Assembly: GCA_002706885.1 (NCBI GenBank)
Contig: PAKY01000076.1
Location: forward strand, 1 to 37,258
DNA length: 37,258 nucleotides
Direction: 5' to 3'
Origin: Phycisphaerae bacterium
Lineage (GTDB): Bacteria > Planctomycetota > Phycisphaerae > Phycisphaerales > UBA1924
Positions 1,329 to 36,184 of the stretch are shown one piece after another. The notes beneath the pieces were generated by a model, which did not search any database, was not told the DNA's origin, and saw only the letters and a list, made by a program, of their open reading frames with translations. Position 1 is the first letter of the stretch, and each line of letters opens with the position of its first letter. The position numbers and the translations under genes were made by a program.

Positions 1329-2306
1329 TCAGGCGTTGGCGACGACCTCGGGCTCGGCCGGCTGCTCGTCCGTCGGGATGAGCACCGCGTCGAGAATCCG
1401 GGCGGCGGTCTTCTGCACCCGGTCGAGCACGGCGGCGAGCTTCTCGGCGTCGCCCCCGTAGCTCTGGATGTAGTCGCTGCACGCCGTGCCCGGCTCCAGC
1501 CCGATGCCGGTGCTCACCACGTAGGCGACGGCCTCGGCCTCCAGCTCCCGGGTCTGCTTGTCTCCCCGCTCGGCGTGCTCGCCATGGTGCAGCATCTCGT
1601 GTGCGAGTTCGTGCACGAGCACCGAGAAACGCTCCGGCGGAGTCAGCTCGGGGCGGATGCAGATGTGCCCGCCCATGCTGATGCCGGCGGCCTGGCCGAT
1701 GTCCATGCGGAGTTCGAGCACGATGCCCTGGTCCACGATGAACCGCTCAAGCCGTTGCAGATGTTCTTTCGGTGTGCCCTGCATCTGGGCCGGCTTCGGC
1801 AGTTCCTCGCCGTCGGTCTGCGAAACGTCGAAGACGGTCGCGGCTTTGAAGCGGAGCACCCTTTCCGGGTCCTGCCCCGGCTCGGCGTCCTGCTTCAGCA
1901 TCATCGGAGCGATGATGGTGATGCCCTTCTCGCCTTTGCGGACCTGACGGCCGAGGCCTTGCCATGTGCGGTACCCGGCCACCCTGGTGGCGTCCGGTCG
2001 CTGCGACAGAATCAGCATCACGTTGCCGAAGCTGTACCGGTGGAACTTCCCGACCATTTCAAGGAACGCTCGGAGCGTTTCGCTCCTGCCGGCGTTCAGC
2101 TCGGCGGCGAGACGTTCAATCGCCTGGTCGATGTGCTGGCGTGCTTCTTGTGCCTTGGTCATCGGGCGAGCTCCTTCCGTTGCCGGGGCCGATGCGGCCC
2201 GCTCGCCAGAACTGGCGGGCCGCTCGGACGCGGTCGGAAGGGGCTCCGATGCGAGGTCGAATGGAGTGCGGACCGAAGCAGCCCGCGGTGCGGTGCTGCT
2301 TCTCAT
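1329..2306 (-). CDS. ardC: ArdC-family antirestriction protein (ssDNA-binding plus zincin domain)
   Basis: A 325-aa protein. After a low-complexity N-terminal stretch of about 45 residues comes the ArdC-type ssDNA-binding domain, recognisable by 'HRYSFGNVMLILSQRP' and 'GYRTWQGLGRQVRKGEKG'. A zinc metallopeptidase-like domain follows, with HELAH at residues 232-236 and a downstream acidic stretch (RELEAEAVAY) that could supply the third ligand. In the family, ArdC proteins are carried by conjugative plasmids and protect incoming ssDNA or blunt host restriction. The start at 2306 overlaps the stop of the upstream HTH gene as ATGA and has GGAGGA upstream, so translation is probably coupled. The open frame continues upstream to 2480, but that part merely overlaps the HTH gene. 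Confidence 0.88.
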   Translation of the reverse strand: MRSSTAPRAASVRTPFDLASEPLPTASERPASSGERAASAPATEGARPMTKAQEARQHIDQAIERLAAELNAGRSETLRAFLEMVGKFHRYSFGNVMLILSQRPDATRVAGYRTWQGLGRQVRKGEKGITIIAPMMLKQDAEPGQDPERVLRFKAATVFDVSQTDGEELPKPAQMQGTPKEHLQRLERFIVDQGIVLELRMDIGQAAGISMGGHICIRPELTPPERFSVLVHELAHEMLHHGEHAERGDKQTRELEAEAVAYVVSTGIGLEPGTACSDYIQSYGGDAEKLAAVLDRVQKTAARILDAVLIPTDEQPAEPEVVANA

Positions 2307-2605
2307 GCGAACTCCTCCAGCGATGGGTGCACGTTGCCGCGCACCGGTGTGTAGTCGGGCCGGAGTCGACGTTCCTCCCATGCGATGACGTCGCTCAGGC
2401 GTGCGTACCTGATGCGGCCCCGCTGCTCGAACGGAAGCTCCCCCCGTTGCATGGCGTCGATGACGGTCTCCCGTCGGCAACGCTGCATCTTGGCGATCTG
2501 CTCAAGGCTCAACCATCTCGGCATGCCCTTGGGGAACGCCGAGGTGTTCAGGCTCAGTTCGTCGGACTGCTGGTGCGGCGTCCGTGCCGCTCCGTCCGGA
2601 CTCAT
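2303..2605 (-). CDS. small helix-turn-helix DNA-binding protein (excisionase/MerR-like)
   Basis: A 100-aa protein whose middle, 'MPRWLSLEQIAKMQRCRRETVIDAMQRGELPFEQRGR..YARLSDVIAWEERR', has the pattern of HTH_17/excisionase-type domains: a recognition helix after LSLEQIA, then a small wing and a W-containing helix. Proteins of this kind act as recombination directionality factors or local repressors. It is first in the cluster and overlaps ardC by ATGA. The start is uncertain: the ATG at 2605 gives 100 aa and the ATG at 2524 gives 73 aa and still keeps the domain. Confidence 0.75.
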   Translation of the reverse strand: MSPDGAARTPHQQSDELSLNTSAFPKGMPRWLSLEQIAKMQRCRRETVIDAMQRGELPFEQRGRIRYARLSDVIAWEERRLRPDYTPVRGNVHPSLEEFA

Positions 2606-2765
2606 CGAGCCCCGTCGATGATGAGGTGTCCCCGAGCGTTCGGCTCAGCGAGACGTGGTTTGGCCGCGAGGCTCAAACAGCGTTCTGCCGCATGACCCTC
2701 TGGCATGTATCTGTGTGCGTTCATGTGCATCCATCTCCTTTTCATTCACTTGTGAACCCCGCCAC

Positions 2766-2846
2766 GTGCTTTCCCAGCGGAGGGGGCTTTCGGTGGGGTT
2801 CAAGCGAAGCGGCCCCCCGAAATGCACCCGCAGCCTGGGAAAGCAC
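2766..2846. repeat. nested inverted repeat (large hairpin), possible origin, oriT or RNA
   Basis: GTGCTTTCCCAG at 2766-2777 is the exact reverse complement of CTGGGAAAGCAC at 2835-2846, giving a perfect 12-bp outer stem. Inside it, 2788-2798 (TTTCGG, bulged T, GGGG) pairs with 2813-2822 (CCCCCCGAAA) in a 10-bp inner stem around a 14-base loop. No T tract follows on either strand, so a simple terminator is unlikely. Function is inferred from position only. Confidence 0.65.
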
Positions 2847-2860
2847 CAGAAATGCGGTCT

Positions 2861-2953
2861 GAGCGACGCACGCACGTCGTGCGTGCCTGGAGCGAAGTCC
2901 ATAGACCAAAACTCCTGCTGCGGAGCGACGCACGCGGAGCGTGCCTGGAGCGA
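2861..2953. repeat. two copies of a dyad-containing repeat
   Basis: GAGCGACGCACGC occurs at 2861-2873 and 2923-2935. Its partner GCGTGCCTGGAGCGA occurs at 2881-2895 and 2939-2953. The first copy is centred on the perfect 19-base inverted repeat GCACGCACGTCGTGCGTGC (2868-2886). The second has a shorter dyad, GCACGC-GGA-GCGTGC (2930-2944 region). Paired dyads beside a ParA operon suggest protein-binding sites, such as a centromere or iterons. Confidence 0.6.
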
Positions 2954-3061
2954 CACCTTGTTCAAAGAGCGGCGGGGTCGCTCGAACACAAGCGGCGGGC
3001 ATGACGGGTGAAGCCCGGCGTGACCGGTGCGTTCGAGAGACACCATCCACTTGGTTGAGCA

Positions 3062-3490
3062 TCACCGACCTTGGAACATCCGCGAGGCTTCACCGATCGC
3101 CGCGGCGAGCACTTCGCTGACCCGTCGCTCAAACTCGGCCGTGCCCTTACGGTCGTCGTTCCGGGGGCGGACCAGCCCGTGGGTGTGTCTTGCCTTCTCG
3201 TGCAGCGATGGCTCGCACCGGTGTGCGAGCACGAGCAGTGCACGGAGCAGATTGCTCGGCCGAACGGTGACTCCCAGGCTTTCGCTCAGCCGAACACACA
3301 TCGACTCGAACCGTCGCTTGTCGTCGGGATGGATCCGTGTCCGGAGCGTGGTCTCGGTCGCTCCGGCGAGCGTCTCGCGAGGCGGAGCGGCCGGTGTCTG
3401 TGGCTTCGGCGGGTTTGGAGTGAGCATCGCGTCCATCGCGATGCCGGCGAGCGGTGAGAACGGGCGGTCTTTCTCAGATTGGGAACTCAT
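3062..3490 (-). CDS. small ParA-partner protein, possibly ribbon-helix-helix
   Basis: A 142-aa protein encoded directly after parA and overlapping its end by 17 bases. The ATG at 3490 is set by GGAGGT five bases upstream; the frame stays open to 3607 but only inside parA. The N-terminal third is Pro/Ala-rich and probably disordered. The core 'ETTLRTRIHPDDKRRFESMCVRLSESLGVTVRPSNLLRALLVL' reads like a short beta strand followed by two helices, as in ribbon-helix-helix DNA-binding proteins. Many plasmid ParA ATPases are paired with such a small centromere-binding partner instead of a full ParB. The role is inferred from pairing, and the fold is a guess from the sequence pattern. Confidence 0.65.
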   Translation of the reverse strand: MSSQSEKDRPFSPLAGIAMDAMLTPNPPKPQTPAAPPRETLAGATETTLRTRIHPDDKRRFESMCVRLSESLGVTVRPSNLLRALLVLAHRCEPSLHEKARHTHGLVRPRNDDRKGTAEFERRVSEVLAAAIGEASRMFQGR

Positions 3491-4364
3491 CGTCGACCTC
3501 CGTATCGGTGAGTGAGCCGAGTCCTCGCTGGGCGAGGACAAGGCGTGTTTCGATGCTCTCGGCCAGTTCGCCGAACTCCCGGGCGACCGGGTGGTCGGGA
3601 AAGGCATCCGGCACGGGCCGGCCGACCTTCTGGGCGGTTGGCACGACGGTCGAGCGGCTGATGGCGGGCGTGAAGCGGAATGTGTTGCCCGGCGGCATGG
3701 CGAAGGTCTGGTCGACGTATCCGACCAGCTCTCTGGCGAGCCGGGTCCGCATGTCCACGGCGTTGAGCACGACGCCGAGCAACTGGAGCTTGGGGTTCGG
3801 GCCCGAGCGGACGGCCGTCATGTCCCGGAACGCATCGGCCAACCCGGTGATGGCGAGCGGGTCGGGCGTGGCGGTCAGCAGGAACCAGTCCGCCTGGGCG
3901 TAGGCCGAGAGTGCCGGCGAGAGCACGGTGCTCGGCGGCGTATCGAGCACGATGACGTCGTACCGGTCACGGAGTGTTTGCAGGGCGTCCCCGAGCACGT
4001 CGAGCCGATTCCAGAACCGTGAGCGTGCCGCGAGTTCAGCGTCGATGGTTTCGAGCCGTCGCTTGGCCGGGATGAGGTCGAGCCGGTCCGGGAGCCATGG
4101 GTCTGTTTCGCCCCTGCTCACGACCGCTTCGGTTGGTGTGACCTCGCCGAGCAGCAGCTCCAGCGTGCCGGAGTAGACATCGGGGCTGAGCCCGAGGTGT
4201 TTGGTGGCTCCGGCGGACGGGTCCAGGTCCCAGAGCACGGTGCGGTGGCCGCGGTTGGCGAAGCCGCGGGCGATGTGGACGGCGGTGGTGGTCTTGCCGA
4301 CGCCGCCCTTCTGGTTGCCGACGGCGATGACCGTCCCGCCCCAGAGGGTTTCGAGTCCGTTCAT
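3474..4364 (-). CDS. parA: ParA-family partition ATPase
   Basis: A 296-aa protein with the deviant Walker A motif KGGVGKTT at residues 19-26, including the signature lysine K19. The strand 'WDLDPSAGATKHLG' follows, then Walker B 'VIVLDTPPS'. Length and motif order match small (type Ib-like) ParA proteins without an N-terminal HTH. ParA uses ATP-dependent DNA binding to distribute plasmids or integrated elements to daughter cells. The ATG at 4364 follows AGGAGA at a six-base gap; the longer frame to 4478 lacks support. Its partner gene overlaps its 3' end. The promoter must lie in the 4365-4817 gap shared with the divergent winged-helix gene. Confidence 0.92.
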   Translation of the reverse strand: MNGLETLWGGTVIAVGNQKGGVGKTTTAVHIARGFANRGHRTVLWDLDPSAGATKHLGLSPDVYSGTLELLLGEVTPTEAVVSRGETDPWLPDRLDLIPAKRRLETIDAELAARSRFWNRLDVLGDALQTLRDRYDVIVLDTPPSTVLSPALSAYAQADWFLLTATPDPLAITGLADAFRDMTAVRSGPNPKLQLLGVVLNAVDMRTRLARELVGYVDQTFAMPPGNTFRFTPAISRSTVVPTAQKVGRPVPDAFPDHPVAREFGELAESIETRLVLAQRGLGSLTDTEVDDEFPI

Positions 4365-4817
4365 GTGTTTCTCCTGTTGTGTGGTTATGGCCGGTTGGCT
4401 CGCGGATGAGCGGTTGGTATTGCCACGCTCACTCCCGCGGGCCACGGCGGCGTCCGGGCTCGACGGCCCGGTCGCCACACCAGCACCCGCGAGACTGCCA
4501 CAACTCGGAGCACGAAGTCAACGGTGATCCGGCGTCATCGCCTCCACGCCGACAGGGCCATCGCGGCATCAACGCCATGGCGCCATCCGGCCGCACAAGG
4601 GTCTTGCACGGACGCATCGAAGTGGGACAAGGTGAGGGAAAGGGAACGGCCGCCGTGACCACGGCGGCCATTGAGACTGGAGATCGTTCTCGGAACGCAC
4701 ACCGAGCCGATGACTCGAACCTACGACACTTCGTGCCGAGTCGTCAACGGTTGGCTCTTCCACCGACTCCGGTCTCTCCACACGGCGAGCACTCGCCGCA
4801 TCGAGAGGGAGGGGACC
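4365..4817. other. divergent promoter region between parA and the winged-helix gene
   Basis: About 450 bases with no credible gene; open frames here are shadows. It must hold both divergent promoters, but I cannot place convincing -35/-10 pairs. Its clear element is the palindrome at 4648-4669. Confidence 0.55.
4648..4669. promoter_or_regulatory. perfect palindrome, likely operator
   Basis: GGCCGCCGTG at 4648-4657 is the exact reverse complement of CACGGCGGCC at 4660-4669, with two central bases (AC) between. A dyad of this size between two divergently transcribed genes, one encoding a DNA-binding protein, is typical of an operator. Autoregulation by ParA's partner or by the winged-helix protein is inference. 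Confidence 0.5.
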
Positions 4818-5894
4818 ATGACGACGATCACGTACGCCCGAGGGCGAGACTGGCACATCGAGGCCCGCAAGCCGCGGGGCGGCTTCTGCTTCATCCACGA
4901 GCACAGCATCCATGCTGTCTGGTCGTGTTTGCGGTCGGGCGACATCGAGCTGCGAGACGTTCGGGTGTGGCTCGCGTGCCACGAGCTGACGGTTCGTCGC
5001 TGCACGCTCGAAGCGGGCCGCACGCCCCGCTACAGCGTCAAAGAGCTGCACGGTCTCGTCGGTGGGGTCGGGGGCGAGCACGTCCGCCGCTCGGTGCGTC
5101 GCCTGGAGAAGCACGGGCTGCTCCGATTCAGCGAAGATGCCATCGACACCGTTCCGTACGAAGTCCAACAGCACCCCGGCCGGCCCATCCCGGTGCCCCG
5201 GCCCGTGCTCCGTCTGCTGGCCAAGAGTCGGGGAAGGGCCTTCATCGCCACGGTGCTCGGTCACCTGCTCCGCTGCGTGTTCTACAAGAACGGTGTTTGT
5301 CGTTCCGGCGGGTGGTGCAAGGCGTCCTGGGTGGCCGAAGCTTTCGGCGTCGCCCTCCGGGCGGTGAAGGAAGCACGAGCACGCCTGCTCAAGCTGGGCG
5401 TGCTCCGGTCCGTCGCGGCCGACCAGCTCCGCCTCAACCGGTTGGGGTCCCCGCAGGTTGTTTGCCTGGACTGGAGCAACGAACCCGCACCCCGGCACCG
5501 GCAATCCACAACCGAATCTGCACCCCCAAAGAAGCACAAGGAACTCTCCTCACGGAGAGTTGATCACCAGAAACCCGCCCGGGCGGCGGGCCCGGCTGGT
5601 GCTCGAACACGAGCGAAGGAGCCGGACCTGAACAACGTGACGGTGGCCGACCTGAAAGACCCCTGGCGACTGGCGGCCCTGTTCAAACAAGCGAGGCTGC
5701 GGGGGTGGGTCCGAAAGACCGAGGCTGAGATCCTTTCGATGTTCTCCGCAGCCGCACATGCCTTGCGCACCGGAACAGAACCGGCCGCACTCTTCTCGTG
5801 GATGCTACGAACACGGCGGTACGAAACGCTTTCCTGCATCGACGAAGACGTTGGGCGTGCATCTCTAAGTGCTTTGAGAGGTGGACAGAGCTAG
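4818..5894 (+). CDS. protein with two winged-helix-like segments, candidate replication initiator
   Basis: A 358-aa basic protein. Two helix-turn-helix-like segments can be picked out. The first, at about residues 68-105, is 'YSVKELHGLVGG..GEHVRRSVRRLEKHGLLRF'. The second, at about 165-200, is 'CKASWVAEAFGVALRAVKEARARLLKLGVLR'. Both end in the 'L-hydrophobic-x-x-G-L-hydrophobic' wing entry. A charged low-complexity linker (about 230-275) and a helical C-terminal domain follow. Tandem winged helices next to ParA suit a plasmid replication initiator, but a transcription regulator is equally possible and I recognise no named family. The ATG at 4818 has GAGGGGAC upstream; the frame opens earlier at 4671. 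Its 3' end overlaps the convergent GHKL gene by 30 bases. Confidence 0.65.
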   Translation: MTTITYARGRDWHIEARKPRGGFCFIHEHSIHAVWSCLRSGDIELRDVRVWLACHELTVRRCTLEAGRTPRYSVKELHGLVGGVGGEHVRRSVRRLEKHGLLRFSEDAIDTVPYEVQQHPGRPIPVPRPVLRLLAKSRGRAFIATVLGHLLRCVFYKNGVCRSGGWCKASWVAEAFGVALRAVKEARARLLKLGVLRSVAADQLRLNRLGSPQVVCLDWSNEPAPRHRQSTTESAPPKKHKELSSRRVDHQKPARAAGPAGARTRAKEPDLNNVTVADLKDPWRLAALFKQARLRGWVRKTEAEILSMFSAAAHALRTGTEPAALFSWMLRTRRYETLSCIDEDVGRASLSALRGGQS

Positions 5895-7850
5895 ATCCTT
5901 GGCTTTGCGAGCCCCCTTGCCATGAAAAAGGTGCGGATAGCGGACCTTCAGAGTATCGAGACCCTTGGCGTGTGAAGCCTCCACCTTCAGCTGTTCACGA
6001 AAGAACTCGTACCGGGCACGAGCATCGTTCAGTACATCTGACCAACGGCGTACCCAGATGCGCACACCATTGCCGTCGAAAAGGCATCCCTCCGGGAGCC
6101 TCTCAGAGGATGTCTCTTGAACAACAAAGTCATCAAGATCATTACCGAGGAGCCAGAACTCCCAGTGGCACTTATCAGTCCTGAATCGCTCGTCCTTGGC
6201 GACTGTAAACGCGTACTTCTTTATCTGTGAGGTCTCTTCCTGCCCTAGTGAATCACGGGGCCGTTTCAGCTCGACCACAAGGTGTTCGAAACGGTCCCTG
6301 TCAACCTTGCGGCGTCGGTAGAGCATCAGGTCCGGAATGCCTTCTTTACCGTCGATGAGTTTCACGTCAGCGTCAGGAGCGAGTTCCTCTCGCTTCATGA
6401 TTGCAAGATGCTTCTTAAGTACATCGCGAAGGCCATCGTCGTCACCACCCAGCGTGTACTCCTCGCCGAGGAGCCAAATCTCATGCACCAATAGGCGGTG
6501 AAGCTGCGTCCGTTCAAGAAGCCTCTTCTTCCAATCGCCGTCAAACAGAATGTGTTCGAACGCGTGAATGACATCAAGTCGGTCAGCGACGAGTTTTCCT
6601 GCACGGATGAGATTCGTGAGCGGGGCTCTCGCCAGAAGCTCTGCGAACGCCTCTCGTTCCTCCTCTGGCAGGGCTACTACTTCGTGCAGAATCTTCGTCA
6701 GGTTATTGGGATTCGCCTCCAAGGCTTGCTTGACGAGGGCAAGCGTGAGCTTTTTGTTCTGGCTATCGGTCTTCTCAAATGACGGGTGCTGCTCGTTAAT
6801 CTGAACGGCGACGATGTCGAAGACTTCACGCTCGGCTTTGGAAAGCGGATCTTCCGGCTCATCCGTGTACGGATAGATGTTGTCGTCTTTCCATTGCTGC
6901 ACAACCGAGGTCGATTCCTCGGCGAGCCTCCCGCGAACATACTCCCTAAGACGATCCTTGGCGGTGTCAACAAGACGCTTGACCTCCTCATCGAGTTCAT
7001 CCGTGACGAAGCGAGCGGAATCCGCCCATTCGGGTGCCCGTGGTGTTCGGAGATACGCCGTGTACTCGATTCCTCGGGCCTGCACCCCAGCCGGGATATC
7101 GTGGAATGAAAAACCTTGGTCGTCGCAAATGTGCAGACGCTTCCCATCGGGTTTAAACTTCCACTCCAGAACCTGAAGTTGAGCGGGTCCCAGTGGATCG
7201 TCCCCGGAGAGCACATCGAGTGTTTCGTCACGCTCCACCAGCTCACTGACCTGGATCTCCCGACCGTCCCAATAGAGATGAACGCCGGGATAACTGGTGA
7301 GGTAGGACGCAAACGTCTCTGCGAGCTTCTCCCGTATGTCGCTCCGGGCGAGCGTGTGGTGCCCCTTGTCGATGCCTTCGAGACGGACCACGGTGCCAGT
7401 TCGCTGGCCGTCCGCGGGCTTCGGTTCACTGGCTTCGTAGTAGTCTGCGGAGTCGCGTGCCACCTTGATGGTGTACGTCAGCGTTTTGCCGTTCTCGCGA
7501 ACCGTGGTTTCCCAGACTGCGGTCGGACACAGGGACAAGGCCTTGAAACGTCCCTTACCTTCACGACCGTGATACGCACGCTGTTCAGGATTGACCTTTC
7601 GCTCGACCTTGACGGAGTTTCCGATAGCACCGAAGGCTCGCTCCAGGTCGTCTGGTCTGATCCCCGGCCCACGGTCCGCAACTTCCAGTCTGTTCACCGC
7701 CCCCAGTTCGTTCATTTGCAGCGACACATCGACTCGCTCACCGCCAGCATCGAGAGCATTCCAAATGAGCTCTTCCACAGCCTTTTGAGGCGAGGTGCCC
7801 ATCAACCTCTGTACATGGTCACGTCCAACCTCGACTTTGTGTCGTTTCAT
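5865..7850 (-). CDS. GHKL (MORC/Hsp90-like) ATPase fused to a PD-(D/E)XK nuclease
   Basis: A 661-aa protein. The N-terminus is a GHKL ATPase: the N-box 'EELIWNALDAGG' (N31, D34), the G1 box 'ADRGPGI' (D59) and the lid/G2 segment 'HGREGKGRFKAL'. The C-terminal quarter shows a PD-(D/E)XK nuclease pattern, 'GIPDLML' (D507), then 'LVVELKRP' (E527, K529). MORC/MutL-like GHKL proteins beside restriction genes are a known comparative-genomics theme. An ATP-gated clamp coupled to cleavage is inferred. It is the last gene of the restriction operon, 21 bases after res, and its local GC is lower than in the methyltransferase genes, hinting at a separate origin. Confidence 0.8.
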   Translation of the reverse strand: MKRHKVEVGRDHVQRLMGTSPQKAVEELIWNALDAGGERVDVSLQMNELGAVNRLEVADRGPGIRPDDLERAFGAIGNSVKVERKVNPEQRAYHGREGKGRFKALSLCPTAVWETTVRENGKTLTYTIKVARDSADYYEASEPKPADGQRTGTVVRLEGIDKGHHTLARSDIREKLAETFASYLTSYPGVHLYWDGREIQVSELVERDETLDVLSGDDPLGPAQLQVLEWKFKPDGKRLHICDDQGFSFHDIPAGVQARGIEYTAYLRTPRAPEWADSARFVTDELDEEVKRLVDTAKDRLREYVRGRLAEESTSVVQQWKDDNIYPYTDEPEDPLSKAEREVFDIVAVQINEQHPSFEKTDSQNKKLTLALVKQALEANPNNLTKILHEVVALPEEEREAFAELLARAPLTNLIRAGKLVADRLDVIHAFEHILFDGDWKKRLLERTQLHRLLVHEIWLLGEEYTLGGDDDGLRDVLKKHLAIMKREELAPDADVKLIDGKEGIPDLMLYRRRKVDRDRFEHLVVELKRPRDSLGQEETSQIKKYAFTVAKDERFRTDKCHWEFWLLGNDLDDFVVQETSSERLPEGCLFDGNGVRIWVRRWSDVLNDARARYEFFREQLKVEASHAKGLDTLKVRYPHLFHGKGARKAKDLALSTSQST

Positions 7851-7871: not shown

Positions 7872-10800
7872 TTACGACACCAACTCCATGAGTTTCCCAT
7901 ATCCATCGACGACCTCGTATCGAACACGATCAGAGGCGATGCCGGCAAAGAACTTCCGGGCACAATCGATCTTCCGCTGCTCGATCTCCCGAAGCTCCAT
8001 GCTTGACATTGAGCCCTTGGTCTCGGCGATGAAGAAGACGTGCCTAACCTTATTGTGGTCGAAAGCGATGGCCCAGTCTGGGTTGTAGCCGCCAACGGGT
8101 GTCGGGATCGAGAAGCCACGCGGGAGCTTGGCGTACACGACCACCTCAGTGCTCGCGTCAAGCTCCTCGACAAACTGCCGCTCGTTCTTCGAGTCGGTGA
8201 ACACGTAGTCGTAGATGTGGCGGTTAGCCTTGAAGGCCTTGCCGAAGCTGCCCTTGGGCTTCTCTTGAGTAAAGATCTCGATGTCGTGTGTGCCCTCGAT
8301 TGGGTCGTAGGAGAGCCGCTCAACAATCACCGTCGCCTTCTGCTCGTTGATCAGCCGAGTTGCTTCTGCGATGAATCCCTCGGGGTTTGTCTTGTACTGG
8401 GCAAAGGTCGTCGCGTTGACCGATGTCAGGATCGACGCCACGGTCCGTCGCGTCAGATCGGTCTGCTCGGCGAGATTTCCGATGAGGTCGTACCGCACGC
8501 CCGAGTAGACCGATGCTCGGTGCGAGAGCGTCTCGGTTTCCCCCAATTCGAATGCGGTGCCTCCTCGTAACTGATCGACGGTGGCCCCGTCTCGTTGCTC
8601 CCCACGCTGAATCGTGTACTGGAGCGGGGACACATTCAACTGCTTGTCGAGTGCTCGGACACACTTGTCAATCAACTCGGCTGAGTCGAAGTGAACCGTA
8701 TAAGCGGCCTTCCGGTTGATCCGGTCCCAAAGTTCCTTGAACTCCTTCCGCTCAAAGTTGGCCTTGTTGATCGGATTCGTCTTTGCGGCTCGTTCATCCT
8801 CAGGAAGCGGAATCTGTACGTCGCTGAAGACACTATCGATGAGCTTGAACACCTCTTCCGCGTGCGGCTTGAGGTCATCCGGAAGCTCCGCGAGGACTCC
8901 CTGCTCCTTCGCCTCGTGGTAGGACGGGGCAACGCGGTCGTTCTCGTCGGTGTAGTCGTTCTTGAGCAGGTACTTGTAGATCTGCTTCGCCATCTGCGGC
9001 GTCACCTGGGTGGAGCCCTCCGCCGTCTTGATGGTCTTACCGGCGAAGTACTCCTCATTCGCCACGCGGGGGCGCTCCGAGAGGGAGTCGCTGATGTCCT
9101 TCTGAAGGCCAGCTACAAAGTCCTTGTAGCTCTCACTCGCGACAACCGTCAGCACGTTGACCTCGTGCACCGTAGCCGGGTCGTCGGACCGCTCGCCCTT
9201 CCGCGAACCATCCGAGAAAACCGAAAGCCGCATGCCTCGCCCGACTTCCTGGCGACGGGAGATCGTGTTGTCACTGTGCTTGAGCGTGCAGATGACAAAG
9301 ACATTGGGGTTATCCCAGCCCTCGCGGAGAGCTGAGTGGGAGAAGATGAATCGGGTTGGCTCTTCCAGGGACAGCAGCCGCTCCTTGTCCTTCAGGATCA
9401 GGTCGTAGGCATCGGTGTCGTCGCTCTCCCCCGCATTCTCGCCCCGCTTGGCAACGGTTGGGTCGACCAGTCGCCCTTTCTTCTTGTCGATGGAGAAGTA
9501 CCCGTTGTGCGTCTTGGCGGCCTCGATGCCCTTGAGATACTTCGAGTAGTCTGACTCGTACAGCGTCAGCACCTCATCCAGGTGCAGTCCATACTCCTCC
9601 TCGAACATCGTGGCGTACTCGCCCGGCTGCTCGCCGTTCTCGTCGTACTGCCGGTACTTCGCCACTTCGTCGATGAAGAACAGCGTGAGCACCTTGATGC
9701 CCTGCTCGAACAGCCGCTGCTCCTTCTCGAAGTGGGCCTTGATCGCTTCACGGATCTGAATCCGCCGGAGCGTCGACTCGTTCACGTCACCCGTCGCTTC
9801 ACCCGCCTGGATTTCGTGCCCATTGGTGAAGCTGACCGTGTCGCTTCGGGCATCGATGTCCGCGACGACGAAGCCCTTGTACTGGTCGAGCCCGCCCGAC
9901 AGGTCGTACAGACTGTCGTTGCGACCAACCCGCTTGATGACCCGCTTGATGCCGCTGCCCTGCTTGACCTCGATCTCCATCCTCGCCTCCGGCGGCTTGC
10001 TCGGGGAGATGATCACCGACTCCAGGAACAGATAGCTGTTCGTCCCACTCAGCCCCTTCACCGAGATGCCGCGGACCGCGATCTTCTTGACCAGCTTCTG
10101 GTTGTACGCATCCAAGGCGTCGAGCCGGTGCACCTTGTTGTGGCTCGTCCTGTGCGTCGCTGAGTATCGCAGGATCATCAGAGGGTTGAACTCCTTGAGG
10201 GAGTCCAGCGTCTTCTTCCCTTCCATCTTCTGCGGCTCGTCCAGGATCAGGATCGGCCGATTGGCCTTGATCACGTCGATGGGCTTGCGGGACTGGAAGT
10301 CGTCCAGCTCCTCGTAGATCCGCCTCGCGTCCTTGCCAGTCGCGTTGAAGGCCTGCACATTGATGATCATCACGTTGATGCCAGCGTCCGACGAGAAGCT
10401 CTCCAGCTCGTGCAGCCGCTTGCTGTTGTAGATGAACGCCCGGGCCTTCTTGTGATACTCCTCCAGGAAGTGCTCGGCGGTGATCTCGAACGACTTGGCC
10501 ACGCCCTCGCGGATCGCGATGCTGGGCACCACGACGATGAACTTGCTCCAACCGTACCGGCGGTTCAGCTCGAACATCGTCTTGATGTAGCAGTACGTCT
10601 TGCCGGTTCCCGTTTCCATCTCAATGTCGAGGTTGACGTCGCACACCTTGGTCTTGACCAGCTCGCTCGATTCCGGCAGGTTCTGCCGCCGCTGCACCTT
10701 CTTGATGTTCTCCAGCAGGGGCAGCGTTCGGGCGATCTCGTTGTTCCGGAAGCCCGGCAGCTCGAAGGACTCCGTCTCGCCCTTCTTCTGCTTGCCGGGG

Positions 10801-10913
10801 TCAATGCGGTACCGCCACGGCGTCGCGGGCGGTTGACCCTCGAAGCAATCCACCACCGCGTCGACTGCGGCCGTCTGGTACGCCTGTTTCTTGAACTTGA
10901 GCTTCATGGTCAT
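7872..10913 (-). CDS. res: Type III restriction enzyme Res subunit (helicase-nuclease)
   Basis: A 1013-aa protein of normal length for Type III Res. The SF2 translocase motifs appear in order: METGTGKTY (Walker A, K105), LDEPQKM (motif II, DEPQ form), RYSATH (motif III), '[20 protein letters not shown]' (motif V) and '[11 protein letters not shown]' (motif VI). The C-terminal nuclease has NPDWAIAF (D946) and AETKG (E964, K966), an intact PD-(D/E)XK site. With Mod it should translocate on or sense DNA between asymmetric unmethylated sites and cut nearby. The ATG at 10913 follows AGGA; a second ATG lies two codons later. It is 32 bases downstream of mod1. Confidence 0.95.
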
Positions 10914-10945: not shown

Positions 10946-11345
10946 TCAGAGCGTCTTGACTTCCGTGCCGGGGGAGAGCTGCTTGAAGATCTGCTCGACG
11001 TTGATCTTCACATCGTCGGAGCCGTATCCGGCATCGCGGAACACCGCCCGCAGCGGCTTGCGGGCGGCGAGGTCCTTCACGAAGGCCTCGTCGATGGCCG
11101 CGGCGAAGCAGGCCGCGAGGGCGTTGGTGTCGACGAAGTAGACCGGCTTACCGCGGAGCTGTTCCTTGGCGATGGGCAGCGACAGGTCGACACCCCAGTC
11201 GAGCAGCACCTGGAAAAGCAAGTCCTCGTCGGTCCGGTCGTCCTTGATGTTGTCCACGTGCCCGCCGAGCAGGGCCGGCGTCGCCTCGTCCGGGCGGTAG
11301 TACACGTCCTTCATGTTCGACGAATCGACCTGTAGGACACGGAAG
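10946..11345 (-). repeat. near-identical C-terminal coding segment shared by the two mod genes (copy 1)
   Basis: The 3' ~400 bases of mod1 match the 3' end of mod2 (12859-13257) with scattered, mostly synonymous differences, far closer than the middle of the genes. This suggests recent duplication or continuing gene conversion. Confidence 0.8.
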
Positions 11346-12793
11346 CCTCGGCTAGGTGAGGGCACTTCCTCAAGCAGCTGTCCGTCATCCCGCTGGAACC
11401 GCCTGAGACGTTCCTTCCCGACCTCGGCAATCGTCGAAAGCTCAAGCTCGCCGTCGTTCTCCGGCAGTGACAAGCTCTCATCCAGCTGAATAAGCAAGAA
11501 TTTGCGGGATCCTCCATCGGATGCATTCGCTTCCATGACAGCCTGGCCAGTCGTGGCCGAACCCGCGAAGAGGTCAACGACGATGTCTCCGGTATGAGAG
11601 TCGGTGCATTGTTCCACCAGATAGCGAACCAACTCCACCGGCTTCGGGAAATCGAAGTACTTGTGACCCCCGAATACCTCCTTCAGACGGTTTGTCGCCG
11701 TCTCGGTGTGGAACACGCCCAAGCTAGTGACAATCGGTACGTTCTCGTTCTTGTACTCAGACATGAACTTTTTCTGCCGAGGCATGCCATCGGGTGTTCG
11801 AGGAAAGAGGATCTTCCCCTCGGAGATCATCTGCTGGATGGTATCGGGCGAGTAAGCCCACTTGTTGGTGTACGAATGGCCCGTGTCTGGGTCAGTAAAC
11901 GTGAACGTCTTTGCCGTCGCCAGTGTGGACTTTATGTTGTCGGCTTTCCATAGGCCACGCGGGTCATTGTCGGGGTTCGCGAACGCGTCTGTGGTTCTTG
12001 GGCGGCCGGAGAAGCGAAAATCGCCCTTCGAGTAGCACACGATGTACTCGTGATTGGTCACCACCATATTCAATGGCGGCACGCCTTTGGGAGCAGTTTT
12101 GGTCACCCAGGTAAAGACGGCGGTCAGGCTGCCGTGCCCAAAGACCTCATCACAAACCATAAGTAGTCGAGCAAGTTCGCGTTCGTCAATAGAAATGCAG
12201 ACGATGCCTCCGTCGACCAACAGATTTCGAGCCAGCCGAAGCCGTGGCCACAGCATCGAGAGCCAAGTGGAATGAAAGCGGCCATTCGCTTCCGTATTCG
12301 CAACCAGCCTTTCTCCCTCGTCAGATGTCTCTCCCGATCGCTCGCGATAATCCCCAACACTCTCGGAGAAGCTGTCTCGATAGACAAAGTCTCTTCCGGT
12401 GTTGTACGGCGGATCGATGTAGATCATCTTGACCTTGTTCAGATAGGTCTCCTGGAGCAGCTTCAGGGCGTCCAGATTGTCGCCCTCGATGAAGAGGTTT
12501 TGCGTCGTGTCGAAGTCGACGCTCTCCTCCCGACACGGGCGGAGCGTCTTGGCGATTGGGGCGTTGGCCGCGAGCAGGGCCTCCCGCTTGCCAGGCCAGT
12601 TGAGGTGGTACCGCTCCTGCGGCCCTTCAACGATCTCGGGCGACAGCTCCTGGCGAAGCAGGTCGAAGTCCACCGCCCGCACGACCTCGCCCTTGTCGTT
12701 CCGCGACTCCGTGATACACCCCGGGAAGCGGGCGGCGACCCACTCGATGTTGTCGGCGACGAGGTCAGGCGTGTGCATCTTCAGCTTGGTCAT
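10946..12793 (-). CDS. mod: Type III Mod DNA methyltransferase, copy 1 (res-proximal)
   Basis: A 615-aa beta-class amino-methyltransferase. Catalytic motif IV is '[10 protein letters not shown]', and the SAM motif I '[13 protein letters not shown]' comes later, the motif IV-first order of Type III Mod. The region between, about residues 180-390, is where target recognition usually sits. The C-terminal ~130 residues from '[31 protein letters not shown]' onward are nearly identical to copy 2, and the first ~150 residues are also very similar. The middle is almost unrelated. It precedes res directly, so this is the copy that looks like the classical mod-res pair. The start ATG is 12793. Confidence 0.93.
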
Positions 12794-12858: not shown

Positions 12859-13257
12859 TCAGAGGGTCTTGACTTCCGTGCCGGGAGAAAGTTGCCTGAA
12901 GATCTGCTCGACATTGATCTTCACGTCGTCGGAGCCATACCCGGCATCGCGGAACACCGCCCGCAGCGGCTTGCGGCCCGCCAGCTCCTTCACGAAGTCC
13001 TCGTCGATACCCGCGGCGAAGCAGGCCGCGAGGGCGTTGGTGTCCACGAAGTAGACCGGCTTGCCGCGGATGGTCTCCTTAGCGATGGGCAGCGACAGGT
13101 CCACGCCCCAGTCGAGCAGCACCTGGAACAGCAGGTCCTCGTCGTTCCTGTCGTCCTTGATGTTGTCCACGTGCCCACCAAGCAGGGCGGGCGTCGCCTC
13201 GTCCGGCCGGTAGTACACGTCCTTCATGTTCGACGAGTCGACCTTCAGGACGCGAAA
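12859..13257 (-). repeat. near-identical C-terminal coding segment shared by the two mod genes (copy 2)
   Basis: Counterpart of 10946-11345; see that entry. The two copies lie about 1.9 kb apart as direct repeats, so recombination between them could delete one central specificity region and leave a hybrid mod. Confidence 0.8.
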
Positions 13258-14766: not shown

Positions 14767-15452
14767 CAGGCGGTCAGCTCGTCGATCTGGGTCTGGAGGG
14801 CACGGGCCTCGGCGTTGATCTCGACTTTGCGGTTGAACTGCTTCTCGCGGCTCAGCCGGGTCTCCAGTTTGGCGTGCTCACGCTGGAGCGACCGGATGCG
14901 GTCCAGCCGCTCCGCATGATCCTTGAGCGATTCACTCTCTCGCGGTGGGTACGGCATGAGTCGGCGGAGAAGCTGGCCGTAGAGCGACGCAAGATCGAGA
15001 GCCACGGGAAGGGGCGAGCGGGGAGTGTCCGCTGGGAACCAAGCAGACATGAAGTAGTCGCCCACGACCCACTTGGTGGAGTCGGCCTCGCTGGGCCGCT
15101 TGAAAGCCGCGACGGCCCGGACGCGGTCGGCGGCTCCGACTTCGAACAGGATCGGGAAGCCGATGGCCTTGTCGATGCAGCGGAGGACGTCCTCGGTGAA
15201 CTCGTCCTCGGCCGCGGCCTTGAGCGTCACGCCGAAGACCTGGATCTCCTCGACGCCCGCCTTGGCGGGGATTCGGATGGTCTCCGGAGCGAGCTTGTAC
15301 TTCCAGACGATCTGGGCGACCTCGTCGGTGAACCGCTGCTGAAGACGCCGGGTCGGCTTGGCGTGGGCGTAGATTTTGTTCTTGGGCAGCACCTTCTCGA
15401 AGGCGGCCTGGGGCGGGTAGGCGAAGAGTGGGCACGCGGCGTCGACCGTCAT
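14766..15452 (-). CDS. DUF4391-like protein
   Basis: A 228-aa protein. Its beginning, 'PPQAAFEKVLPKNKIYAHAKPTRRLQQRFTDEVAQIVWKYKLAPETI', and its middle, 'LRCIDKAIGFPILFEVG', match what I recall of DUF4391, a family of unknown function often found beside helicase-methylase clusters. The C-terminal ~50 residues (ESLKDHAERLDRIRSLQREHAKLETRLSREKQFNRKVE) form a likely coiled coil. No catalytic motif is visible. It overlaps the helicase gene upstream by ATGA and mod2 downstream by TGATG, so it is made together with both. By inference it is an adaptor between the helicase and the methylase-nuclease part. Confidence 0.75.
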   Translation of the reverse strand: MTVDAACPLFAYPPQAAFEKVLPKNKIYAHAKPTRRLQQRFTDEVAQIVWKYKLAPETIRIPAKAGVEEIQVFGVTLKAAAEDEFTEDVLRCIDKAIGFPILFEVGAADRVRAVAAFKRPSEADSTKWVVGDYFMSAWFPADTPRSPLPVALDLASLYGQLLRRLMPYPPRESESLKDHAERLDRIRSLQREHAKLETRLSREKQFNRKVEINAEARALQTQIDELTA

Positions 15453-18400
15453 GTCGCCTCCACCACCGCGACGAAGGCGATCAGTTCAAAGTCGTCGAGC
15501 CCCGCGATTTGGGCGGTGAGGGCCGTGGTCTTCTTGCCGGTGAACAGGCTGTCGAGGTCTTTGTCTTCCTTGAGGTCGACGATGGACCGGATGGCCCGGC
15601 TGAGCAGGCCGGAGTACTTGGTCATGTCCCGACCGTCGTCGGTCTCCGTGTTGAAGACCGAGCAGGCAGGCTTCTCGGGTTCCGACCGGTTCCGACACGC
15701 GGCCCGAGCGAGATCGAGCAGCCGCTTGACCTCCATGTGGTTGACGTTGACTTCACCTTCCATAGACACGTAGACGAGGTAGTACGGGTGCAGCCGGTTC
15801 TGCTGGTTGACATTGACGCCGTGGTGGCGATTGCGAAGGGCGAAGATCACGCCGGGAGTGAGGCCGATGGATGCGTCAGACGGGACGACGGCGTGGAGTC
15901 CGGTCGGGAGGCTTTCAAGATCCCCGTCGGCCTTGATGTAGTTGAGCAGGTCCATCCGGAAATCGTTCAGTCCGAGGTCGGTGATGGAGACTCCCGTGCG
16001 GAGGTCTTCCATCTCAATGACTTCTTCTTGAAGCTTGCGCAGCTGCTCCTGCCGGTACGAGACATCGCCCGCCTTGGCCGTGAGCACGTTGTCGTCGCCC
16101 GTCGCCGTGACGTCTGCGATCACCATACGGTTCTCGACACGCTCCTTGAGGTTGATGTACTCGTCGAGCGTGATGTCAGGCCAGTAGTTGACGAGCTGGA
16201 TGCTGGCGTTGGGCGAGCCGATGCGGTCGATGCGGCCGAACCGCTGGAGGATGCGGACGGGGTTCCAGTGGATGTCGTAGTTGATCAGGTAGTCGCAGTC
16301 CTGAAGATTCTGCCCCTCCGAGATGCAGTCCGTCGCGATGAGGATGTCGATCTCGTTGCTGTCGTCGGGCATGATGAGTGCCTTCTCCTTCGATCTCGGC
16401 GAGAAGATCGTGAGGAGCGACTGGAAGTCGTAGGACTGCTTGAGCGTCGACTTCGGCCCACCTGTGCCAGTAACAAGCCCCACGTGCACTCGCTGGTCTT
16501 TGACCAACTCGGGCGAGAGGACACGGAAGAGGTACTTCGCAGTGTCAGCGAAGGCTGTGAAGATGAGCACCTTCTTGTTGCCGGGGTTGATCGGCGATGC
16601 CAGCTTGCTGCGGATCTGCGTCTTCAGGTGCTGGAGTTTGGCGTCGTCGGTTGGCGTGACCTTGTGCATTTCCGCGAGCAACCGCTCGATGACAATCACG
16701 TCTCCCTTGAGAGCTTGTTCCCAAGAGTCGATGTCCATGTCAGAGAGCCGGACCTTGACTTTGCCGCCGATGCTGTCGTCGTCAAAGTCGGGTAGCTCGT
16801 CGTCGTCGGGGTCGATATTGGCGAACGCTCCCGCGACGTCATCGAATCCGGGATCGACGCCGGTTCGCCGGAACGTGTCGATCTTGACCAGGATGTCCCG
16901 GTGGTTCGCCCGGAGTTTGTCCAGCGTGATCCGGAACGCCTCGACGGAGCTCTCCAGCCGCTTGAGCAGGTTGACGGTCATCAGTGACTGAAGGCTTTTC
17001 TCGCGATCGACCTGCTTGAGTTTCCCGCCTCCCCCTTCGACCTCGGTGTCGTAAATGTCCTCGTACTTGGCCAATCGGCTCGGCAGGATGTAGCTGACCG
17101 GGGCGTAGATCGCGAGCACGAGCTGTGACAGGTTGGCGTAGATCTCGTTGAATCCGATGACGTCGCCGCGAGTGGTGAGCGGCGGGTGGTACGAGAGCGG
17201 CTTGCGTCGCTCAGGAAACGTGCCGATGTCCGACGTGTCATAGAAGGTCTGGATGTGCTTGCGCGAGCGCGCGATGGTGACGTTGTCAAGCAACTCGAAA
17301 AAGTCGAAGTCGAGTGCTTCGAGGATCGCGGAGGTGGTCCGCTCTTCGGGTGGGAGTTTGGACCACACATTGAACGTCGCCTGAGCCCGTCGAAAGACCC
17401 CGTCGATGTCCCGCTTCATGCCCAGACGCTCGCTGAAGGCCTTGGTGTCTCCCTCGTAGGCGAGTGCGAGCTGATTCTTCAGGTCGTTGAAGCGGTTGTT
17501 GACCGGTGTCGCGGAAAGCATGAGGACTTTGGTCTTCACGCCTTCCCTGATGACCTGCCGCATCAGTGTGTCGTACCGGGTCTCGCGATCCTTATACGGA
17601 TCCGCATTCCGGAAGTTGTGCGACTCGTCGATGACGACCAGGTCGTAGTTTCCCCAGTTTACCCTGTTCAATGGCGTTCCGAATGACTCGCCGCTGGTCC
17701 GCTGCAGATCTGTGTGGCACAGCACGTCGTAGTTGAATCGGTCACGGGCGAAGATGTTGGTCTTCAGGTTCCGGTTGTAGTTCAGCCAGTTGTCGGCGAG
17801 CTTCTTCGGGCACAGCACGAGGACTGAACGATTGCGGAGTTCGTAGTACTTGATGACCGCCAGAGCCGTGAAAGTCTTGCCAAGACCGACGCTATCAGCC
17901 AGGATGCACCCGTTGAACGTCTCCAGCTTGTTGATGACGCCGGTCGCCGCGTCTCGCTGGAAGTTATAAAGCTTGTTCCAGACCAGGCTGTCTCGGTACC
18001 CCGTGAGATCGTTGGGTAGCACGTCCTCGCTCAGGTCCTCCAGAAACTCGTTGAAGATGTGAAACAGCATCATGAAGTAGATGCGGTTGGGCGGATTCTC
18101 CTGATAGACGGCGGCGATGTGATCAGAAAGGCGTTGCGTGACGTCTGTGACGCGATCGGGATCATTCCAGATCTGTTCAAACAGAGCCAGGTACGATGCG
18201 GTGTGAGGCGCAGAGTCGATCCTCGTAACGAAGTTGGACACCGCGTCACCCTGCTGATAGCCAAGATCTACGGCCGTGAATCCGTGCAGTGGCTGATAGA
18301 CAATCTGTGTCGCGTCGCGGGCCACGGCTGCGAACTGCTGCATCGGGGCCTTGGTGCGATTCGAGCGGAATGTCGCCTTGCGACGGATCCACTCCGCACA

Positions 18401-18721
18401 CTCACGAGCGATAGCCCGCTGCATGAGCTTGTTCTTGAGTTGAAGTTCAAACTCCGAACCGTAGAAGCTCCGCTCACGTGACCGGCGTGGGATGTGGAAC
18501 TCTCGGCGTTGCTTGGCACCGCTATCCGTGACCTCGTCTGGTACGAAGGTTGGGGAGGTGAAGATGAACTCAACCGAATCAACTTGGTCCAGTTGCTCTT
18601 TGAGTGCCTCGTACGCGAAGATAGAGAAGCAGGACGCGGCGACCTTCAGTTTCGCACCCGGACGTACGGCAGCCTTCAAGTCGTCGCCGAGCAGTCGGTT
18701 GATGTTGTCGATCAACTCCAT
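15449..18721 (-). CDS. SNF2-type superfamily 2 helicase
   Basis: A 1090-aa protein. The N-terminal ~200 residues ('KLKVAASCFSIFAYEALKEQL..SVEFIFTSPTF') recall the degenerate PLD-like domain that precedes some bacterial SNF2 helicases, without a clear HKD motif. The motor has 'DSVGLGKTFTAL' (Walker A, K282), 'VIDESHNFRN' (DESH, D365-E366), 'MLSATPVNN', 'VLIFTAFADTAKYLF' and 'RILQRFGRIDRIGSPN' (motif VI). An acidic insert, 'DPDDDELPDFDDDSIGG', lies between the two RecA halves. The ATG at 18721 follows AAGGAG at an eight-base gap; the frame extends to 18784 inside the HTH gene. It probably remodels or translocates DNA for the restriction operon it heads. Confidence 0.88.
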   Translation of the reverse strand: MELIDNINRLLGDDLKAAVRPGAKLKVAASCFSIFAYEALKEQLDQVDSVEFIFTSPTFVPDEVTDSGAKQRREFHIPRRSRERSFYGSEFELQLKNKLMQRAIARECAEWIRRKATFRSNRTKAPMQQFAAVARDATQIVYQPLHGFTAVDLGYQQGDAVSNFVTRIDSAPHTASYLALFEQIWNDPDRVTDVTQRLSDHIAAVYQENPPNRIYFMMLFHIFNEFLEDLSEDVLPNDLTGYRDSLVWNKLYNFQRDAATGVINKLETFNGCILADSVGLGKTFTALAVIKYYELRNRSVLVLCPKKLADNWLNYNRNLKTNIFARDRFNYDVLCHTDLQRTSGESFGTPLNRVNWGNYDLVVIDESHNFRNADPYKDRETRYDTLMRQVIREGVKTKVLMLSATPVNNRFNDLKNQLALAYEGDTKAFSERLGMKRDIDGVFRRAQATFNVWSKLPPEERTTSAILEALDFDFFELLDNVTIARSRKHIQTFYDTSDIGTFPERRKPLSYHPPLTTRGDVIGFNEIYANLSQLVLAIYAPVSYILPSRLAKYEDIYDTEVEGGGGKLKQVDREKSLQSLMTVNLLKRLESSVEAFRITLDKLRANHRDILVKIDTFRRTGVDPGFDDVAGAFANIDPDDDELPDFDDDSIGGKVKVRLSDMDIDSWEQALKGDVIVIERLLAEMHKVTPTDDAKLQHLKTQIRSKLASPINPGNKKVLIFTAFADTAKYLFRVLSPELVKDQRVHVGLVTGTGGPKSTLKQSYDFQSLLTIFSPRSKEKALIMPDDSNEIDILIATDCISEGQNLQDCDYLINYDIHWNPVRILQRFGRIDRIGSPNASIQLVNYWPDITLDEYINLKERVENRMVIADVTATGDDNVLTAKAGDVSYRQEQLRKLQEEVIEMEDLRTGVSITDLGLNDFRMDLLNYIKADGDLESLPTGLHAVVPSDASIGLTPGVIFALRNRHHGVNVNQQNRLHPYYLVYVSMEGEVNVNHMEVKRLLDLARAACRNRSEPEKPACSVFNTETDDGRDMTKYSGLLSRAIRSIVDLKEDKDLDSLFTGKKTTALTAQIAGLDDFELIAFVAVVEAT

Positions 18722-18725
18722 GCGA

Positions 18726-18941
18726 CTACTCCTTGCCCGGTGGCTGGAACGTGGTGCCCGCACCCTGCTGCAACCAGCGATCAATCGCCTCTCGACTGAA
18801 CCGCCAATGCTTCCCGACCTTCTGCCCCGGCACCTTTCCCTCCTGGGCGAGCTTGTAGAGCGTCGACTTCGCGACCTGGAGGTAGGCCGCGAGTTCGTCG
18901 ATCGTCATGACCTGCGGCGGGTCCACGGGGGCGGCCTCCAC
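18726..18941 (-). CDS. small helix-turn-helix protein (excisionase/MerR-like) heading the restriction operon
   Basis: A protein of 71 aa from the GTG at 18941, or 60 aa from the ATG at 18908, which has a weak AGG upstream. The sequence 'MTIDELAAYLQVAKSTLYKLAQEGKVPGQKVGKHWRFSREAIDRWL' is a textbook HTH_17/excisionase-type domain. Its stop lies five bases before the SNF2 helicase start. As first gene of the restriction operon it may be a control protein that delays restriction until methylation is established, a job done by C proteins elsewhere. A recombination directionality factor is the other reading. Confidence 0.82.
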   Translation of the reverse strand: MEAAPVDPPQVMTIDELAAYLQVAKSTLYKLAQEGKVPGQKVGKHWRFSREAIDRWLQQGAGTTFQPPGKE

Positions 18942-29608: not shown

Positions 29609-29776
29609 TCAGGGTCGCAGCTCAGAATCGCTCAACTCTCGGCCGGCGATGGCCGGCACTTTCGCCGCCAAGTAATCCAGATCCGAGCTCCAGATGCGAA
29701 CTCCGCCATCGACCCCGCTCGCCGCATACCACGCCCCATCGGGATCCACGGTGATGTCGCGTACCGGAACGGCGGC
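29609..29776 (-). pseudogene. 3' remnant of a WD40-repeat protein gene
   Basis: The minus-strand frame reads 'VPVRDITVDPDGAWYAASG' then 'VDGGVRIWSSDLDYLA', one clear WD40 blade (the PDG turn and the DG-VRIW ending). It is followed by 'IAGRELSDSELRP' and a stop, similar to C-terminal tails of bacterial WD40 proteins. Upstream the frame runs straight into the first CRISPR repeat, so the rest of the gene is gone. It has no start of its own and is best read as a truncated gene left at the array edge. Confidence 0.7.
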
Positions 29777-31656: not shown

Positions 31657-31707
31657 ACCCCTTTCGTAACCGACGTTGCGACAGGGGCTTCCAACCATTC
31701 GCGCCCG

Positions 31708-36134: not shown

Positions 36135-36149
36135 TGCTGGAAGTCTCAC

Positions 36150-36178: not shown

Positions 36179-36184
36179 TTCGAC

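What the first reader, a model, noticed from the sequence alone, without database searches (positions are those of the whole stretch)
5865..7850. GHKL ATPase carrying a PD-(D/E)XK nuclease motif at the end of a restriction operon
N31/D34, D59-x-G-x-G and GREGKG define a GHKL fold; D507, E527 and K529 fit a nuclease. MORC-like ATPases in restriction clusters have been predicted before, but the fusion with a nuclease and the link to Type III Res suggest an ATP-driven clamp that may cut on its own.
Basis: partly seen in the sequence, partly recalled or inferred. Interest (0 to 1): 0.6.

Follow-up and report, generated by a model that had tools for sequence, protein, structure and literature searches.

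The report
GHKL-gated Shedu-like anti-phage nuclease (paraMORC3)
This gene encodes a bacterial defence protein that joins an ATP-powered clamp to a DNA-cutting domain; it belongs to an already described family (paraMORC3 / GHKL-type Shedu) and seems to sit beside a Type III restriction system through defence-island packing, not as a conserved partner of it.

Summary
A 661-aa protein is encoded on the minus strand (7850 to 5865). Its N-terminal GHKL ATPase plus S5 module resembles MORC and Hsp90 (best VIA Z 19.8, MORC3). Its C-terminal domain (about residues 425-645) has a confidently predicted PD-(D/E)XK core, with E446-D507-E527-x-K529-Q542-x3-Y546 invariant in 65 of 65 relatives. The gene is last in an operon SNF2/HKD helicase - DUF4391 - Mod - Mod - Res - GHKL nuclease.

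GHKL plus restriction-endonuclease-fold fusions were described in 2008 as paraMORC3. One, VcSduA (a Shedu type I-D protein), was shown in 2025 to block phages alone, needing both the GHKL glutamate (E27) and the nuclease lysine (K557). The equivalents here are E27 and, by inference, K529.

The link to Type III Res is not conserved. The closest relatives (72% and 63% identity) lack Type III genes. The SNF2-DUF4391-Mod-Res module occurs complete without the GHKL gene. In 392 same-phylum genomes only the window's own holds both.

Best reading: a stand-alone, ATP-gated, Shedu-like defence nuclease in a defence island that also holds Cas9 with a CRISPR array. New member of a known kind.

The parts
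5865..7850 (-). GHKL ATPase - S5 - PD-(D/E)XK nuclease gene, 661 aa (paraMORC3 / GHKL-type Shedu)
   Evidence: ORF; Pfam; alignment; model
7239..7850 (-). GHKL (Bergerat) ATPase domain, residues 1-204
   Evidence: HATPase_c_3 5e-16; VIA Z 19.8 to MORC3 over residues 7-312
7749..7772 (-). GHKL motif N1: E27, N31, D34
   Evidence: invariant 65/65; E27A in VcSduA abolishes defence
7662..7676 (-). GHKL motif D59-x-G61-x-G63
   Evidence: invariant 65/65
7548..7571 (-). GHKL glycine-rich lid H94-G-R-E-G-K-G-R101
   Evidence: H94, G95, G98, G100, R101 invariant 65/65
6861..7238 (-). S5-like transducer domain and long helix, residues 205-330
   Evidence: secondary structure; VIA alignments to MORC/Hsp90 extend to residue 312 or beyond
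6579..6860 (-). helical middle region, residues 331-424, lower confidence (pLDDT about 60-80 over most of it)
5916..6578 (-). PD-(D/E)XK nuclease domain, residues 425-645
   Evidence: model pLDDT 92.6, pTM 0.89; VIA Z 9.5 EndoMS, 9.2 E. coli SduA, 9.0 B. cereus Shedu
6513..6515 (-). nuclease helix-A glutamate E446
   Evidence: invariant 65/65
6330..6332 (-). nuclease D507
   Evidence: invariant 65/65
6264..6272 (-). nuclease E527-x-K529
   Evidence: invariant 65/65; the published mutation of the nuclease lysine in VcSduA (K557A) abolishes defence; its correspondence to K529 is inferred
6213..6227 (-). RecB-type Q542-x3-Y546 motif on helix B
   Evidence: invariant 65/65
7872..10913 (-). Type III Res, 1013 aa, 21 nt upstream of the GHKL gene (neighbour, not part of the protein's conserved context)
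   Evidence: PADLOC REase_III 1106 bits
10946..12793 (-). Type III Mod (second copy), 615 aa (neighbour)
   Evidence: PADLOC MTase_III 673 bits
12859..14766 (-). Type III Mod (first copy), 635 aa (neighbour)
   Evidence: PADLOC MTase_III 722 bits
14766..15452 (-). DUF4391 protein, 228 aa (neighbour)
   Evidence: Pfam PF14335 3e-57
15449..18784 (-). SNF2 helicase resembling PADLOC HKD+Snf2, 1111 aa (neighbour)
   Evidence: PADLOC C3a139 408 bits; Pfam SNF2-rel_dom/Helicase_C

Best explanation
The gene encodes a single-protein anti-phage restriction factor of the paraMORC3 / GHKL-type Shedu (type I-D) kind. ATP binding by the GHKL domain (E27, N31, D34, D59, G-rich lid) would dimerise the N-terminal gates. 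The S5 transducer and helical middle region would pass this closure on, trapping or positioning DNA between the two subunits. Closure or hydrolysis would then license the paired C-terminal PD-(D/E)XK domains (E446, D507, E527, K529, with Q542/Y546) to cut or nick foreign DNA while sparing the host. It probably works on its own; its place behind Type III Res gives co-transcription and joint mobility in a defence island rather than an obligate complex. Shown here: architecture, motif conservation, predicted folds, lack of conserved linkage. Shown in the literature for a relative: both active sites are needed for defence, and the gene suffices alone. Inferred: dimer gating, what it recognises, that this copy is active, and that it is independent of the Type III enzyme.
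For: GHKL: Pfam 5e-16; GHKL+S5 aligns to MORC3/MORC2 with Z 18-20 over about 280 residues. Nuclease: AF2 pLDDT 92.6, VIA Z 9.5 EndoMS, 9.2 E. coli SduA, 9.0 B. cereus Shedu, 8.4 FokI; hhalign of the domain to SduA_C proteins 95.6% probability against 0.1% for reversed and GHKL controls; PADLOC SduA profile matches 8 of 65 full-length relatives and 4 of 65 isolated domains, best 8e-7 and 3e-6. All catalytic positions invariant in 65/65. VcSduA E27A and K557A both abolish defence, and the gene alone protects E. coli and V. cholerae (PMC12137116). Independence: no Type III genes near the 72% and 63% relatives, module complete without GHKL on plasmids, both present in only 1 of 392 genomes, P 0.26 for at least one overlap by chance.
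Against: The window protein itself has no Pfam SduA_C (PF14082) or PADLOC SduA hit; its sub-threshold Pfam nuclease hits are VRR_NUC and HSDR_N_2, and HSDR_N_2 matches more of the relatives (42 of 65). So the nuclease is only remotely Shedu-like by sequence. The 21-nt gap to Res argues for co-expression. No activity data exist for this copy. A dimer was not modelled here, and pTM 0.58 of the full model leaves domain placement uncertain.
Confidence: 0.72

Rival explanations
1. It is a functional sixth subunit of the Type III system: the ATP clamp loads at or marks Mod-bound sites and its nuclease cuts together with Res (the first reader's idea, close to the DNA-looping role proposed by Iyer et al. 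for MORC/paraMORC proteins in restriction operons).
For: Same strand, 21 nt after Res. Iyer et al. 2008 propose looping roles next to SFII helicases. Some relatives sit directly behind other restriction helicases (L104 HsdR, L035 Type ISP, L042 SNF2).
Against: The partner is not conserved: nearest relatives lack Type III genes, the neighbouring machine differs from relative to relative, and the SNF2-DUF4391-Mod-Res module exists complete without the gene. The own genome is the only one of 392 with both.
Confidence: 0.13
2. It is a sequence-specific Type II-like restriction enzyme of the BbrUII/HgiDII type (GHKL-bearing), whose own site is protected by one of the two Mods.
For: NCBIfam BbrUII/HgiDII matches 61 of 65 relatives, window protein 4e-17; PADLOC REase_II PDLC03485 matches 50 of 65. 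Psychrobacter relative L033 sits beside a dcm gene and an LlaMI-type endonuclease gene.
Against: Score 62 bits against an equivalog cut-off of 550; the best stretch is the GHKL region only. The nearest relatives have no adjacent methyltransferase. Two Mods for one Res are explained by differing target-recognition regions.
Confidence: 0.1
3. It is a MutL-like DNA-repair factor rather than a defence protein (Iyer et al. raised this for solitary paraMORC3 genes).
For: MutL and Hsp90 profiles match the GHKL part; some relatives stand alone.
Against: The genome carries its own MutL (C74, over the family cut-off). The gene is patchy (5 of 392 genomes), often on plasmids and here lies in a defence island.
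Confidence: 0.04

Closest known systems
VcSduA, GHKL-type Shedu (type I-D), Vibrio cholerae WASA lineage (PMC12137116)
   Same: N-terminal GHKL ATPase with the key glutamate at residue 27, C-terminal PD-(D/E)XK domain with a catalytic lysine (K557 there; K529 here by inference), single gene
paraMORC3 family (Iyer, Abhiman and Aravind 2008, PMC2292703)
   Same: GHKL + S5 + C-terminal RecB/restriction-endonuclease-fold nuclease with E-D-ExK motifs; sporadic distribution; restriction context or standalone
   Different: No defining feature found to differ
Shedu SduA (E. coli 8ps4/8ps5; Bacillus cereus 8ti8/8ti9)
   Same: Nuclease domain fold (VIA Z 9.2 and 9.0, about 142-154 residues aligned)
   Different: Those proteins carry other N-terminal domains in place of GHKL (own knowledge); sequence identity in the nuclease 10-15%
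BbrUII/HgiDII restriction enzymes (NCBIfam NF050001)
   Same: GHKL region similar (4e-17), overall length about 660
   Different: Far below the family cut-off (62 against 550 bits); no methyltransferase gene conserved beside the nearest relatives
MORC2/MORC3 ATPases
   Same: GHKL + S5 module fold (Z 18-20)
   Different: MORCs have CW/coiled-coil parts and no nuclease domain (own knowledge)

Membership tests
GHKL ATPase superfamily | motifs N1 (E-x3-N-x2-D), DxGxG, G-rich lid | tested here: met
   E27/N31/D34, D59-G61-G63, H94-G95-G98-G100-R101 invariant 65/65; HATPase_c_3 5e-16
PD-(D/E)XK nuclease superfamily | alpha-beta-beta-beta-alpha-beta core carrying E-D-ExK | tested here: met
   AF2 domain model pLDDT 92.6; VIA Z 9.5 EndoMS, 8.4 FokI; E446, D507, E527, K529 invariant
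PD-(D/E)XK nuclease superfamily | metal-dependent DNA cleavage | not testable with these tools
   needs purified protein
paraMORC3 | GHKL followed by an S5-fold domain | tested here: met
   residues 7-312 align to MORC GHKL+S5 at Z 18-20
paraMORC3 | additional C-terminal RecB-like restriction-endonuclease-fold domain with E-D-ExK motifs | tested here: met
   criterion from PMC2292703
paraMORC3 | grouping in a tree with the published paraMORC3 sequences | not tested
   published alignment not at hand
MORC family proper | GhXhhpXXRhl motif in the S5 domain | not tested
   motif not scanned; the nuclease-bearing architecture fits paraMORC3 instead
Shedu (type I, GHKL = type I-D) | DUF4263 / SduA_C nuclease domain by sequence profile | tested here: inconclusive
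   window protein: no Pfam SduA_C or PADLOC SduA hit; relatives: PADLOC SduA 8/65; profile-profile 95.6% against 0.1% controls; fold Z 9.2 to E. coli SduA
Shedu (type I, GHKL = type I-D) | anti-phage activity needing the nuclease lysine and the ATPase glutamate | not testable with these tools
   shown for VcSduA only (PMC12137116)
Type III restriction-modification system (as a subunit) | conserved genetic linkage with Mod and Res | tested here: not met
BbrUII/HgiDII restriction enzymes | NCBIfam NF050001 equivalog cut-off of 550 bits | tested here: not met
   61.9 bits

The most novel reading that the evidence does not exclude
The GHKL nuclease has been recruited in this lineage as an ATP-gated back-up or partner of a two-specificity Type III system (two Mods sharing one Res), for example sensing DNA ends or translocating Res complexes and cutting there. 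That would be a physical union of Shedu-type and Type III restriction not described in the papers found here.
Probability: 0.08. Interest if true: 0.5.

Novelty: new member of a known kind. Interest (0 to 1): 0.22.

Why it matters
It adds a member, in a genome whose sampled phylum rarely carries it, to a recently validated class of ATP-gated defence nucleases. Its catalytic residues and nuclease boundaries are now mapped by a 65-member alignment. It also warns that adjacency to a Type III operon is not evidence of a joint machine: the two modules travel separately. How GHKL closure licenses a Shedu-type nuclease, and how host DNA is spared, remain open and are testable on this family.

Tried and rejected
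Single-protein scan of genome contigs found nothing; an alignment of plasmid relatives was needed. Relatives in the same family and order mostly matched only through short GHKL stretches that look like MutL, so they were not used. Whole-model fold searches were filled by Hsp90/MORC/MutL and barely tested the C-terminal part, so the nuclease was folded and searched alone. Foldseek on the nuclease alone gave only weak hits (best 2e-3 EndoMS; no Shedu among the 50 rows shown); VIA brought up SduA and Shedu chains. A sequence profile of the nuclease domain found no solved structure. A promoter/terminator scan of the operon gave nothing above shuffles. Rfam: no match in the window. Gu et al. 2025 (Shedu classification) is not held; it is cited only through PMC12137116. 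MutL replacement rejected: the genome has its own MutL.

Full report
What is there. The ORF is on the minus strand, 7850 to 5865, 661 codons, ATG start, TAG stop. It is the last gene of a tight minus-strand run: a SNF2 helicase resembling PADLOC HKD+Snf2 (18784-15449), DUF4391 (15452-14766), two Type III Mod genes (14766-12859 and 12793-10946), Type III Res (10913-7872), then the GHKL gene after 21 nt. Pfam HATPase_c_3 matches residues 20-135 at 5e-16.

Conservation. An alignment of plasmid relatives was used to scan genome contigs, giving 495 relatives, 80 kept. In a 65-member alignment whose relatives are 32-72% identical to the window protein, the ATPase residues E27, N31, D34, D59, G61, G63, H94, G95, G98, G100 and R101 and the nuclease residues E446, D507, E527, K529, Q542 and Y546 are identical in all 65. 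The last two match the Q-x3-Y motif of RecB-type nucleases (own knowledge), which agrees with the RecB relationship reported for paraMORC3 in PMC2292703.

Structure. The full model has mean pLDDT 87.9 but pTM 0.58, so domain placement is uncertain. Residues 7-312 align with MORC3 and MORC2 at Z 18-20 over about 280 residues: a GHKL plus S5 module. Most of residues 331-424 are lower-confidence helices. Residues 425-645 folded alone give pLDDT 92.6 and pTM 0.89. The nearest solved chains by VIA are EndoMS/NucS (Z 9.5), E. coli SduA (9.2), B. cereus Shedu (9.0), Nt.BspD6I (8.9) and FokI (8.4); Z values within 1 are ties, so this shows a PD-(D/E)XK fold with Shedu among the closest, not Shedu alone.

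Shedu question. By sequence the window protein matches neither Pfam SduA_C nor PADLOC SduA. Among relatives, PADLOC SduA matches 8 of 65 whole proteins and 4 of 65 isolated nuclease domains, while Pfam HSDR_N_2 matches 42 of 65. A profile-profile comparison of the domain with seven SduA_C proteins from the same phylum gave 95.6% probability; reversed and GHKL controls gave 0.1% (sequences). Membership by profile is therefore recorded as inconclusive, with fold and profile-profile support.

Literature. Iyer et al. 2008 (PMC2292703) define paraMORC3 as GHKL + S5 with a C-terminal RE-fold nuclease bearing E-D-ExK, in restriction operons or standalone. The 2025 study of V. cholerae (PMC12137116) shows that VcSduA, a GHKL + DUF4263 protein of the kind earlier called paraMORC3, protects E. 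coli and V. cholerae by itself; E27A and K557A each abolish protection; the culture survives infection, consistent with direct restriction. The authors model an entwined dimer and propose that the GHKL domain controls the nuclease. E27 has the same number here; the lysine is K529. VcSduA was not aligned directly because its sequence was not at hand; residue spacing is 530 there against 502 here.

Neighbourhood. The two closest relatives, L040 (72%) and L041 (63%), have no Type III genes on the DNA held, about 3 kb and 10 kb upstream. L042 (53%) has a SNF2 helicase upstream; L043 has a Type III-like Res and Mod in convergent orientation. Others lie behind HsdR (L104; L070 with one gene between), Type ISP (L035), HsdS (L046), near dcm and LlaMI (L033), beside conjugation genes (L032), DNA polymerase I (L109) or a UvrD helicase (L110). 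Conversely, SNF2-DUF4391-Mod-Res with Res 65-67% identical to the window's is complete on E. coli, Raoultella and Aeromonas plasmids without the GHKL gene. In 392 genomes of the phylum, 23 carry such a Res (E up to 1e-50) and 5 the GHKL family (E up to 1e-60); only the window's own has both, against P 0.26 for at least one shared by chance. The association is best read as local packing, though a lineage-specific partnership is not excluded.

Mechanism. Most likely: ATP-dependent closure of a GHKL dimer around or upon DNA activates paired PD-(D/E)XK domains. Shown here: fold and motifs. Shown elsewhere: need for both sites in VcSduA. Inferred: dimer gating, target recognition, activity of this copy, and independence from the Type III enzyme.

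Verdict. The fusion is a published architecture and the Type III link is not conserved. New member of a known kind; modest interest.

Noticed in passing
window 12859-14766 and 10946-12793 (-): Two tandem Type III Mod genes share their N-terminal part (about 75-90% over columns 81-200) and their last 127 residues (about 94%), but only about 20-40% over columns 201-520. This looks like two target specificities served by one Res.
   Followed up: partly
window 29772-31658: CRISPR array of 29 repeats, spacing 65-67 nt, next to Cas2 (31708-32268), Cas1 (32033-32956) and a Cas9-like protein (32943-36209), all three on the minus strand.
   Followed up: partly
window 23389-29334 (+): 1981-aa DUF4011 - helicase - MTES_1575 nuclease - DUF3320 protein, a further likely defence gene.
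   Followed up: no
window 1329-4478 (-) and 21159-22376 (-): ArdC-type anti-restriction protein (1329-2480) and a ParA-like ATPase (3474-4478), with an integrase at 21159-22376: signs of a mobile element carrying the island.
   Followed up: no
L163, L164, L165: SNF2 - DUF4391 - (ATP-binding/AAA/DUF4276 extras) - Mod - Res is a recurrent plasmid-borne module; only one paper in the library mentions DUF4391.
   Followed up: partly
L162 (G065 contig C193, 284-2032): A Res 92% identical to the window's in another genome of the same order appears broken: residues 520-788 are missing between two matching pieces.
   Followed up: no
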